DNA from: Polytrichum commune
Taxonomy: Eukaryota > Streptophyta > Polytrichopsida > Polytrichales > Polytrichaceae
Assembly (NCBI GenBank): GCA_950295325.1
Contig: OX485807.1
Location: forward strand, 45,870,796 to 45,934,795
Direction: 5' to 3'
Length of the DNA: 64,000 nucleotides
A model generated the notes under the pieces. The model saw only the letters and a program-made list of their open reading frames with translations. It was not told the DNA's origin and searched no databases. How positions within the stretch are numbered: position 1 is the stretch's first letter; each line of letters starts with the position of its first letter. The position numbers and the translations under genes are program-made. Below, piece by piece: positions 42,239 to 48,725 of this stretch.

Positions 42239-45200
42239 TTACAAAAGGATTCTCAAAGACCTCAAGTTCCCCAATTCTTCCCATATCGTTGTCAAGCTCG
42301 TGCACCCTCTCAAATCCAGGGTTGTCAAAGAACTCAAGTTCCCCAATCCCTCCGGTATCGTTGTCAAACTCTCACACTCTTGCAAATTAAGGCTTGTCAA
42401 AGAACATAAGTTTCCCAATTCCTCCGGTATCATTGTCAAACTCGTACACCACCTCAAATTAAGGGTTGTCAAAGAACTCAAGTTCCCCAATCCCTCCGGT
42501 ATCGTTGTCAAGCTCGTGCACCCTCTCAAATCCAGAGTTGTCAAAGAACTCAAGTTCCCCAATCCCTCCGGTATCGTTGTCAAGCTCGTACACCCTCTCA
42601 AATCCAAGGTTTTCAAGGAACTCAAGTTCCCCAATCCCTCCGGTATCGTTGTCAAACTCTCACACTCGTACAAATTAAGGCTTGTCAAATAACATAAGTT
42701 TCCCAATTCCTCTGGTATCATTGTCAAACTCGTACACCACCTCAAATTAAGGGTTGTCAAGGAACTCAAGTTCCCCAATCCCTCCGGTATCGTTGTCAAG
42801 TGCATACACCCTTCCAAATCAAGTGTTGTCAAAGAACTCAAGCTCCCCAATCCCTCTGGTATCGTTGTCAAGCGCATACAACCTTCCAGATCAAATTTTG
42901 TCAGAGAACTCAAGTCCCCCAATCCCTCCGGTATTGTTGTCAAGCTCGTACACCACCTCAAATTAAGGGTTTCCAAGGAACTCAAGTTCCCCAATCCCTC
43001 CGGTATCGTTGTCAAGCTCGTACACCCTCTCAAATCCAAGGTTTTCAAGGAACTCAAGTTCCCCAATCCCTCCGGTATCGTTGTCAAACTCTCACACTCG
43101 TACAAATTAAGGCTTGTCAAATAACATAAGTTTCCCAATTCCTCTGGTATCATTGTCAAACTCGTACACCACCTCAAATCAAGGGTTGTCAAGGAACTCA
43201 AGTTCCCCAATCCCTCCGGTATCGTTGTCAAGCTCGTACACCACCTCAAATTAAGGGTTGTCAAAGAATTCAAATTCCTCAATCCCTCCGGTATCATTGT
43301 CAAGCTCTTACACCACCTCAAATTAAGTTTTGTCAAAGAAGTCAAGTTCCCCAATCCCTCCGGTATCGTTGTCAAGCTCGTGCACCCTCTCAAATTAAGG
43401 GTTGTCAAAGAACTCAAGTTCCCCAATCCCTCCGGTATCGTTGTCAAGCTCGTACAGTACCTTATATTAAGGGTTCTCAAAGAAGTCAAGTTCCCCAATC
43501 CCTCCGATATCGTTGTCAAGCTCTCACACCACTGCAAATACATGGTTGTCAAAGAACTCAAGTTCCCCAATCCTTCCTGTATCGTTGTCAAGCTCTTACA
43601 CTTGTCCAATTGAAGGGTTGTCAAAGAACTCAAGTTCCCCAATCCCTCCGGTATCGTTGTCAAGCACGTATACCCTTCCAGATCAAGTGTTGTCAAAGAA
43701 CTCAAGTTTCCCAATCCCTCTAGTATCATTCTCAAGCGCATACACCTTTCCAAATCAAGTGTTGTCAAAGAACTCAAGTTCCCCAATCCCTCCCGTATCG
43801 TTGTCAAGCTCTCACACCCGTTCAAATCCAGGATTGTCAAAGAAGTCAAGTTCCCCAATCCCTCCGGTATCGTTGTCAACCGTGTATACCCTTCCAAATC
43901 AAGTGTTGTCAAAGAACTCAAGTTTCCTAATCCCTCCATTATCATTTTCAAGCGCGTACACCCTTCTAGATCAAGTGTTGTAAAAGAACTCAAGTTCCCC
44001 AATCCCTCCGGTATCGTTATCAAGCTCCCACACCACCTCAAATCAAGGTTTGTCAAAGAACTCAAGTTCCCCAATCCCTCCAGTATTGTTGTCAAGCTCT
44101 CACACCCCTGCAAATCCAAGGTTGTCAAAGAAGTCAAGTTTCCCAATCCCTCCGGTATCGTTGTCAAGCTCTCACACCCCTGCAAATCCAAGGTTGTCAA
44201 AGAAGTCAAGTTTCCCAATCCCTCCGGTATCGTTGTCAAGCTCTCACACCACCTCAAATTAAGGGTTGTCAAAGAAGTCAAGTTCCCCAATCCCTCCGGT
44301 ATCGTTGTCAAGCTCAAGCACCCTCTCAATTTAAGGGTTGTCAAAGAACACAAGTTCCCCAATCCTTCTGGTATCGTTGTCAAGCTCCCACACCTATGCA
44401 AATCCAAGATTGTCAAAGAAGTCAAGTTCCCCAATCCCTCCGGTATCGTTGTCAAGCTCGTGCACCCTCTCAAATTAAGGGTTGTCAAAGAAATCAAGTT
44501 CCCCAATCCCTCCGGTATCATTGTCAAGCTCTCACACCTGAGCAAATCCAGGATTGTCAAAGAAGTCAAGTTCCCCAATCCCTCTGGTATCGTTGTCAAG
44601 CTCTTACAACACCTCATATTAAGGGTTGACAAAGAACTCAAGTTCCCCAATCCCTCCGATATCGTTGTCAAGCTCTCACACCCTTCCAAATCAAGTGTTG
44701 TCAAAAAACTCAAGTTCCCCAATCCCTCCGGTATTGTTGTCAAGCGCATACACCCTTCCAGATCAAGTGTTGTCAAAGAACTCAAGTTCCCCAATCCCTC
44801 CGGTATCGTTGTCAAGCTCTCACACCTCCGTAAATCCAGGATTGTCAAAGAAATCAAGTTCTCCAATCCCTTCGGTATCGTTGTTAAGCTCGTACAACAC
44901 CTCATATTAAGGGTTGTCAAAGAACTCAAATTCCCCAATCCCTTTGGTATTGTTGTCAAGCGTGTACATCCTTCTAGATCAAGGGTTGTCAAAGAACTCA
45001 AGTTCCCCAATCCCTCCCGTATCGTTGTCAAGCTCTCACACCCGTGCAAATCCAGGATTGTCAAAGAAGTCAAGTTCCCCAATCCTTCTGGTATCGTTGT
45101 CAAGCTCGTACACCACCTCAAATTAAGGGTTGTCAAGAAACTCAAGTTCCCCAATCCCTCCGGTATCGTTGTCAAGCTCGTACAACACCTCAAATCAAGG

Positions 45201-48200: not shown

Positions 48201-48725
48201 AGTAGCCACATTCAAATCCTTACACATTCTGTAGTTTTGTGGATTTGGATGGTTTGTCAAGTATATCTCATGCACTGCCTCCCAACAACACTCCAAATCA
48301 AACACGAGTTCCCGAAAGGCTTCTTTGTTGTTTAATTGGAAAAGAGTTGCACGACACCAATCTCCACTCCCACATTCATACACCAATGCTCCCCCTTTTT
48401 GAATGATATGATGTAACTCCATCACCACAACCCTAATTTTGATGGATTGCTTGATGGATGTTATCATCTCAATAATACTATCCATGGTTGTAGAGAGCTT
48501 GGTCACAAGATTTGTGCATTGTTGTTTATTCAACACATCATCTCGTCGGAGAATAATTTGCATTTTGATCATTTCTTTTGCTTTCCATTGCAAAAATTCT
48601 AAAAACTCACATTGATGTGGTGCCCCTTTGTGAACAAGTGTCAAGAAGTATATGAAGCAAATGATGATGTACCGCCACAACATTGACAGTTGCTTCACCA
48701 ATAATTGCCACAGCTCGATGGCCAT
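42239..48725 (-). CDS. Kinase-NB-ARC-LRR immune receptor (PNL type)
   Basis: Three exons on the minus strand: 48725-47085, 46927-45875, 45637-42239. All junctions are phase 0, giving 2030 aa. Residues 1-230 are helical, with a hydrophobic stretch at 16-31, and loosely recall the four-helix N-domains of MLKL/RPW8-type proteins. The protein kinase spans about 235-505: glycine loop VGVGALGSV (240-248), K261, E275, catalytic HLDLKPDN (351-358), DYG (383-385), ALEE for APE (411-414). The key K, D and N are kept, and HLD makes it a non-RD kinase. NB-ARC: GMGGIGKTT P-loop (about 583-591), VLLILDDV kinase-2 (654-661), STLIITTRD, GLPL (747-750), FLDIACFF, MHD (867-869). Then comes a linker and LRRs from 1036. 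Plant NLRs detect pathogen effectors and trigger defence. The PNL form is described from mosses. Confidence 0.88.
42242..45226 (-). repeat. 41 x 72-bp coding LRR array plus 33-nt partial unit
   Basis: The array encodes 41 consecutive 24-residue repeats (consensus LGNLSSLTTLDLRGCTSLTTIPEG split as LGNLSSLTTLDL / RGCTSLTTIPEG). There is not a single insertion or deletion. A final LGNLRSLRILL precedes the stop. Units 29-32 and 35-38 are almost the same four-unit block, and 39-41 is a further near copy, so multi-unit duplication also occurred. Variation concentrates at the residues after LDL and around the Cys. Because 72 is divisible by three, the plus strand also stays open for long stretches; those frames are artefacts. 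Confidence 0.92.

What the first reader, a model, noticed from the sequence alone, without database searches (positions are those of the whole stretch)
42239..48725. Moss-type receptor fusing a non-RD kinase to NB-ARC and LRR
One continuous three-exon model joins a protein kinase to an NB-ARC switch and LRRs. Most plant NLRs start with TIR, CC or RPW8 domains. The kinase keeps Lys, both Asp and Asn but has HLD instead of HRD. Non-RD kinases are enriched among innate-immune kinases. All switch motifs of the NB-ARC are intact, so the gene looks functional.
Basis: partly seen in the sequence, partly recalled or inferred. Interest (0 to 1): 0.85.

Follow-up and report, generated by a model that had tools for sequence, protein, structure and literature searches.

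The report
Moss receptor with MLKL-like kinase arm
The gene is one of many receptor genes of a known moss type in which a kinase is fused to the usual immune-receptor switch and sensor parts, and its front part resembles a whole plant cell-death protein (MLKL) rather than just a kinase, which suggests how these poorly understood receptors may act.

Summary
Window 42239-48725 (minus strand) carries a 2030-aa, three-exon gene with phase-0 GT-AG introns joining kinase, NB-ARC and about 42 LRR units. It belongs to the moss PK-NBS-LRR (PNL) class, in print since 2012, and is one of dozens of copies here: 52 of 70 full-length exon-1 matches have NB-ARC within 3 kb. A sister subfamily encodes everything in one uninterrupted frame, so the fusion is real. 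HLD occurs in 35 of 36 aligned members.

Missed before: the kinase is only the back half of the N-terminus. Its closest solved relatives are plant MLKLs (E 4e-41; next 1e-25), and residues ~62-210 are homologous to the N-terminal domain of a stand-alone moss DUF1221/MLKL-like kinase (E 2.4e-12). I infer an MLKL-like executioner wired to an NLR switch.

Against: PNL sequences alone reach Arabidopsis MLKL only marginally (E 0.0027), Pfam sees no DUF1221 in the window protein, structure models failed, and function is untested. LRR variation sits mainly on the concave face.

The parts
47085..48725 (-). Exon 1: N-terminal domain plus kinase, 547 aa
   Evidence: M1-A2 invariant in 36 of 36 aligned members
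48633..48689 (-). Hydrophobic N-terminal helix (residues 13-31), candidate membrane-contacting segment
   Evidence: 19-aa Kyte-Doolittle mean 1.99; best 19-mer 0.77-2.05 over 36 members, 12 of 36 at 1.6 or more; the first ~40 residues are mostly gapped in 5 of 5 intronless rows of A3, whose own best 19-mers are 0.32-0.94
48096..48557 (-). MLKL/DUF1221-like N-terminal domain and following helices (residues ~57-210)
47232..48020 (-). Protein kinase domain (residues 236-498)
   Evidence: Pfam PF00069 E 1.7e-39
47652..47675 (-). Catalytic loop HLDLKPDN (non-RD)
   Evidence: L at position 352 in 35 of 36
46928..47084 (-). Intron 1, GT-AG, phase 0
45875..46927 (-). Exon 2: NB-ARC and winged helix, 351 aa
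46178..46864 (-). NB-ARC domain
   Evidence: PF00931 E 2.4e-35
45935..46171 (-). ROQ1-type winged-helix domain; MHD at 45962-45970
   Evidence: PF23282 E 2e-7
45638..45874 (-). Intron 2, GT-AG, phase 0; in-frame stop at 45863-45865 if retained
42239..45637 (-). Exon 3: LRR domain, 1132 aa and stop
42239..45247 (-). Array of 24-aa (72-bp) LRR units, 41 full and one partial

Best explanation
A moss PNL-class NLR whose N-terminal arm is a complete MLKL-like module (hydrophobic helix, helical domain homologous to DUF1221, brace-like helices, kinase). Shown: the gene, its domains, the family, homology of the N-terminal domain to stand-alone moss DUF1221 kinases, and variation focused on the LRR concave face. 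Inferred: the long LRR array senses a pathogen ligand; ligand binding lets the NB-ARC exchange ADP for ATP and oligomerise; the clustered MLKL-like arms then expose their helical domains, which permeabilise or channel through membrane and kill or alarm the cell. The kinase most likely gates this arm, possibly by phosphorylation within the oligomer, since its catalytic residues are kept. My odds: about 0.85 for the MLKL-like homology, 0.55 for the whole statement with its mechanism.
For: Closest solved relatives of exon 1 are 6lba (E 4.3e-41) and 6ka4 (6.9e-37); the next is 9.6e-26. 6lba is named an MLKL in PMC10881975 (passage); that both are Arabidopsis MLKLs is recalled. The match starts at residue 194-197, before the kinase, with a weak colinear piece 57-153 on 20-124 of 6lba. 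HMM of 36 N-terminal domains hits stand-alone L001 at 47.7 bits, E 2.4e-12 (database size set by me to 30,000); best of 2000 shuffles 13.6 bits, reversed 3.9. L001 passes Pfam's cut-off for DUF1221 (26.6 against 25), which RefPlantNLR equates with the HeLo domain of plant MLKL (PMC8559963, passage). Profile comparisons: nine intron-bearing domains against L001 E 1.2e-6; 13 PNL domains against four stand-alones E 3.2e-10 over 145 columns, against the 6lba fragment E 2.6e-5, against one unrelated stretch of the same gene E 0.33. The mixed profile A3 ranks 6lba 21-129 first of 177,635 (E 8.8e-6; next 0.045); the stand-alone profile does so independently (E 2.6e-4). Pfam MLKL_N (PF22215) appears weakly in L045, E 0.016. 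Fusion: of 35 matches to L001 in open frames of 749 aa or more, 13 share that frame with an NB-ARC match (14 have one within 3 kb when all 126 NB-ARC hits are used); five read through run 1269 to at least 3195 aa. Function by analogy, from passages: AtMLKLs act in TNL immunity (PMC9950082); the wheat R gene Pm13 is an MLKL (PMC10951266); a P. patens PNL kinase arm gave a modest, variable cell-death response (PMC11218826).
Against: No Pfam DUF1221 or MLKL_N hit in the window protein; DUF1221 in 1 of 36 members, E 0.0047. A profile of nine intron-bearing domains gave no MLKL hit in the PDB up to E 10. PNL-only A4 ranks 6lba first but only at E 0.0027, with MGC80376 chains (IKK-beta, recalled) at 0.016. 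The 6ka4 N-terminal fragment scored 4.1 bits, no better than shuffles. For intronless L046 the best solved match is an EGFR chain, 6lba second. Both AlphaFold models are too poor to use (mean pLDDT 47.5 and 35.9). No expression, cell-death or membrane data.
Confidence: 0.55

Rival explanations
1. The arm acts as a catalytic kinase: oligomerisation brings kinases together and they phosphorylate downstream immune proteins, like a receptor kinase or Tsn1. The N-terminal helical domain is only a scaffold.
For: K261, E275, D353, N358 and D383 are invariant in 36 of 36 members; the six intronless copies read keep HRD and DFG; Tsn1 cell death needs its HRD motif (PMC11218826, passage).
Against: Arg of HRD is lost in 35 of 36 and DFG is DYG or DYD, which may weaken ordinary catalysis; the helical domain is conserved beyond what a spacer seems to need (L65, N66, C70, C118 invariant across 13 PNL rows).
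Confidence: 0.27
2. Integrated decoy: the MLKL-like module is bait for effectors that target moss MLKL-like proteins, and signalling goes through another NLR.
For: RefPlantNLR counted P. patens kinases among integrated domains (PMC8559963, passage); stand-alone MLKL-like proteins exist in this genome.
Against: The module precedes NB-ARC in 26 of 26 copies where both were read (20, window included; 6), as an executioner would; the tree fits one old origin better than repeated capture, with a weak root.
Confidence: 0.12
3. In the plant the main product is a kinase-NBS protein: intron 2 is often retained, translation stops right after NB-ARC, and the LRR exon is rarely used.
For: In-frame stop 1-3 codons past the putative intron-2 donor in 6 of 7 loci with that end in view; four of the six are close copies, and the seventh, L006, has an earlier TGA. 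All PpC24 transcripts found in P. patens stopped at the end of the NBS (PMC3991678, section read).
Against: Exon 3 stays open for 1132 codons with low pN/pS outside the exposed positions (0.33); the intronless copies L040-L043 and L046 carry LRRs in the same frame.
Confidence: 0.06

Closest known systems
PNL (PK-NBS-LRR, Pkn-NLR) class of mosses, Xue 2012, Chia 2024; PpC24
   Same: Kinase, NB-ARC, LRR order; phase-0 introns at both borders; large family; TNL-like NB-ARC
   Different: Described as a plain kinase N-terminus; no MLKL-like helical domain is mentioned in the passages and sections I read. P. patens sequences could not be fetched here to test for it
Plant MLKL / DUF1221 kinases (AtMLKL; stand-alone moss copies L001, L044, L047)
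   Same: Colinear N-terminal domain and kinase; best solved relatives
   Different: The window protein continues into NB-ARC and LRR, keeps catalytic residues that AtMLKLs are reported to lack (PMC10951266, passage), and has an extra hydrophobic N-terminal helix
Pm13, wheat MLKL-type resistance protein
   Same: MLKL-like N-terminal domain before a kinase with catalytic residues kept
   Different: No NB-ARC or LRR; placed in the MLKL_NTD-kinase cluster apart from DUF1221 kinases (PMC10951266, passages)
Wheat Tsn1 kinase-NLR
   Same: Kinase, NB-ARC, LRR order; Chia 2024 puts kinase arms in one structure cluster with Tsn1 as its representative
   Different: Monocot kinase-NLRs sit in the CC/RPW8 clade, most bryophyte ones near TIR-NLRs (PMC11218826, section read); Tsn1 sequence not compared here
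RNL helper NLRs (RPW8/HeLo-like N-terminus)
   Same: Four-helix executioner-type N-terminus, by analogy
   Different: No kinase; RPW8 Pfam hits only in 7 of 36 members, best E 0.021

Membership tests
PNL class | N-terminal kinase, NB-ARC, C-terminal LRR in one gene | tested here: met
   (gene model, no transcript)
PNL class | Phase-0 introns between kinase and NBS and between NBS and LRR | tested here: met
   criterion read in PMC3352924
PNL class | TNL-like NB-ARC | tested here: met
   WHD_ROQ1 E 2e-7; kinase-2 ends LDD (the D-against-W rule is recalled)
PNL class | Moss lineage | tested here: inconclusive
PNL class | Transcribed as one mRNA | not testable with these tools
   no RNA data
Plant MLKL family | Pfam DUF1221 (PF06760) over cut-off | tested here: not met
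   no hit in the window protein; 1 of 36 members at E 0.0047
Plant MLKL family | N-terminal domain homologous to that of DUF1221 kinases | tested here: met
   controls
Plant MLKL family | Kinase closest to plant MLKL among solved structures | tested here: met
   for intronless L046 MLKL is second
Plant MLKL family | Four-helix bundle fold | tested here: inconclusive
   models too poor
Plant MLKL family | Pseudokinase, as in AtMLKL | tested here: not met
   catalytic residues invariant; Pm13 also keeps them (PMC10951266, passage)
Plant MLKL family | Ends after the kinase (no NB-ARC) | tested here: not met
Non-RD kinases | Residue other than Arg before the catalytic Asp | tested here: met
   HLD; 35 of 36 members, L031 has HRD

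The most novel reading that the evidence does not exclude
Moss PNLs are single-chain 'MLKL-NLRs': sensor, switch and necroptosis-type executioner in one protein. They would be a natural fused counterpart of the separate TNL and MLKL steps of flowering plants, and activation would cluster MLKL arms directly without an upstream kinase.
Probability: 0.4. Interest if true: 0.85.

Novelty: new variant of a known kind. Interest (0 to 1): 0.6.

Why it matters
A 2023 review says of the kinase and hydrolase domains of non-flowering-plant NLRs that their part in signalling remains to be demonstrated (PMC10586772, passage). If the arm is MLKL-like, that question becomes directly testable with existing cell-death and membrane assays. 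A fused form would also be independent evidence, of the Rosetta-stone kind, for the reported dependence of TNL but not CNL immunity on MLKL in Arabidopsis, and would extend MLKL-type proteins beyond seed plants, where one review places them (PMC9950082, passage).

Tried and rejected
Rejected: misassembly or a chance join of neighbouring genes (repeated pairing of exon 1 and NB-ARC; uninterrupted frames in the sister subfamily). Rejected: pseudogene (no inner stop; low pN/pS at non-exposed LRR positions). Rejected: RPW8 arm (weak hits). Rejected: composition as cause of the MLKL match (shuffle and reversal controls; one unrelated-stretch control).

Led nowhere: two single-sequence AlphaFold runs, so no fold search was made. 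The nine-member N-terminal profile found only chemoreceptor and aerotaxis-receptor chains at E 0.2 or worse.

Literature: ten searches. In the listings, abstract starts and passages that I saw, none links moss kinase-NLRs to MLKL. Five were listed in full (2 papers; 13: 2; 19: 17; 61: 3; 63: 14); the others were cut (25 of 118, 15 of 92, 10 of 970, 10 of 25,691, 10 of 11). Only the open library was searched; most papers were seen as listing or passages; Mahdi 2020 itself was not seen. So 'not in print' is unproven.

Rows left out: of 38 exon-1 loci fetched (L002-L039) 35 went into alignment A1 with the window; L003, L021 and L038 were dropped. A2, A3, A4 used 9, 15 and 13 chosen rows. The tree has long branches at AtMLKL and two stand-alone rows and only a midpoint root, so 'one fusion' is not proven. 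The set of exposed LRR positions follows the LxxLxLxxCx motif but was fixed after I had seen the window's entropies; for the other ten arrays it was set beforehand. Units were picked by a pattern, so degenerate units are missed.

Full report
The observation. The window lies in an unnamed 407.8-Mb assembly, at C5:45870796-45934795; contigs C1-C7 make up about 406 Mb of it (lengths). Pfam finds Pkinase, NB-ARC, a ROQ1-type winged helix and LRRs. The catalytic loop HLDLKPDN, G-loop, K261, D383 (in DYG rather than DFG), P-loop, kinase-2, TTRD, GLPL and MHD are all present.

It is a family, not a freak. Exon 1 finds 81 matches in the genome at 50-100% identity (only 79 of 709 candidates were scored). 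61 of the 81, and 52 of the 70 longer than 1.5 kb, have an NB-ARC match less than 3 kb downstream on the same strand. In 18 of 20 copies with the P-loop in view the NB-ARC frame opens after TAG|GTG. Phase-0 introns at both domain borders are the published signature of the PNL class (PMC3352924, Results and first part of the Discussion read). The gene is therefore a PNL.

A sister subfamily settles the fusion. The stand-alone kinase L001 used as query gave 94 matches, 35 of them in open frames of 749 aa or longer. 13 of these 35 share the frame with an NB-ARC match; 14 have one within 3 kb when all 126 scored NB-ARC hits are used. This is a lower bound: L041 and L046, not among the 14, do carry NB-ARC. 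Five read through carry N-terminal domain, kinase, NB-ARC and LRRs in a single frame of 1269, 1816, 2131, 2915 and at least 3195 aa; a sixth, L045, ends in the NB-ARC. All six have HRD and DFG. HLD marks the intron-bearing subfamily: 35 of 36 members, with HRD in L031. In a maximum-likelihood tree of 47 rows the intron-bearing (36 rows), intronless (6) and stand-alone (4) groups each fall on one side of a branch and the two PNL groups sit together, but some branches are long and the root is for drawing only.

The N-terminus is MLKL-like. Against all solved chains exon 1 is closest to 6lba and 6ka4 (E 4e-41, 7e-37), 11 to 15 orders ahead of the next. PMC10881975 names 6lba an MLKL (passage); that both are Arabidopsis MLKLs from Mahdi 2020 is recalled. 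The match begins before the kinase and a weak colinear piece covers 57-153. The genome search gave one DUF1221 match, over cut-off, L001, and RefPlantNLR equates DUF1221 with the HeLo domain of plant MLKL (PMC8559963, passage). An HMM of the 36 N-terminal domains scores L001 at 47.7 bits, E 2.4e-12 for a database size that I set to 30,000, against 13.6 bits for the best of 2000 shuffles. PNL-only against stand-alone profile: E 3.2e-10; against one unrelated stretch of the same gene: 0.33; against the 6lba fragment: 2.6e-5, probability 75%. The shared pattern is roughly L-N-x-x-Q-C, then E/D-L/F-x-x-I/V, C, W-x-x-A, and E/S-x-F.

Results against this. Pfam does not call DUF1221 in the window protein, only in 1 of 36 members, weakly. 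PNL-only profiles reach AtMLKL marginally (E 0.0027 with 13 sequences, next 0.016; not at all with nine); the strong PDB hit (8.8e-6) needs two stand-alone rows in the profile. The 6ka4 fragment does not score. For intronless L046 an EGFR chain outranks 6lba. The fold could not be tested. The homology is thus a chain: PNL to moss stand-alone (strong), stand-alone to DUF1221 (above cut-off) and to 6lba (E 2.6e-4).

The LRR array. 41 full units of 24 aa and one partial; 36 of the 41 are different. Variation is greatest at positions 21, 20, 23, 12, 18 and 16; all but 12 belong to the LxxLxLxxCx strand that lines the concave face (the structural rule is recalled). pN/pS among units is 1.30 at the six exposed positions and 0.33 elsewhere; of 11 arrays analysed the exposed ratio is above 1 in 11 and the other ratio below 1 in 10, L040 being the exception at 1.07 with very few synonymous changes. 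This is descriptive: units are not independent, gene conversion is likely, and some exposed ratios are barely above 1 (L042, 1.02). Copy number differs between near copies: 41 counted units in the window, 60 in L003 (93% identical in exon 1), 24 in L002 (96%, whose frame ends differently), 25 in L004 (92%).

Mechanism. Shown: anatomy, family, homology, site-focused variation. Inferred from NLR biology: LRR sensing, NB-ARC oligomerisation. Inferred from MLKL biology: release of a helical domain onto membranes. Supporting analogies read as passages: AtMLKLs are required for TNL but not CNL immunity (PMC9950082); Pm13 is an MLKL-type R protein with a complete kinase (PMC10951266); a P. patens kinase arm, synthesised up to the NB-ARC start and so probably including its N-terminal region, gave a modest, variable response, with mild ion leakage for the tested kinases (PMC11218826). 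The hydrophobic helix at 13-31 (mean hydropathy 1.99) is a further candidate membrane element, but is weaker in other branches (down to 0.77) and missing from the intronless rows. A kinase-signalling reading remains a serious rival.

Isoforms. A retained intron 2 would stop translation 1-3 codons after the NB-ARC exon in 6 of 7 loci with that end in view, echoing the PpC24 transcripts of P. patens, all of which stopped there (PMC3991678, section read). Sequence alone cannot say which isoform dominates.

Verdict. The object is a member of a known moss class. The MLKL-like identity of its arm did not appear in what I saw of ten library searches, and would make the role of these arms testable.

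Noticed in passing
L047 (G000 C5:49395600-49399500) and C5:49.25-49.40 Mb: Five adjacent pairs of stand-alone MLKL-like matches 0.3-0.4 kb apart on one strand (coordinates); one pair read in L047 as two frames 0.2 kb apart, the upstream with HLD, the downstream with HRD. They might be tandem-kinase genes.
   Followed up: partly
window 45863-45874 and L002, L003, L004, L032, L037: In-frame stop just inside intron 2, so intron retention would give a kinase-NBS protein.
   Followed up: partly
L006 (G000 C5:35432000-35434800): A PNL copy whose NB-ARC frame is broken by a TGA: some copies seem to be decaying.
   Followed up: no
L040 5388-7895, minus strand: The LRR array leaves an 835-aa open frame on the opposite strand, probably a by-product of the repeat.
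   Followed up: no
L041, coding frame from base 316: The LRR array holds a 2786-bp exact direct repeat at an offset of 3168 bp (44 units): a very recent duplication inside the array, or an assembly error.
   Followed up: partly
window 14378-15094 and 12538-13005, minus strand: Frames matching PQQ/BamB beta-propeller domains, probably exons of a neighbouring gene.
   Followed up: no
window 34340-35137, minus strand: Frame with a fasciclin domain, E 4.1e-7.
   Followed up: no
window 56967-57118: About five copies of a 29-bp tandem repeat.
   Followed up: no
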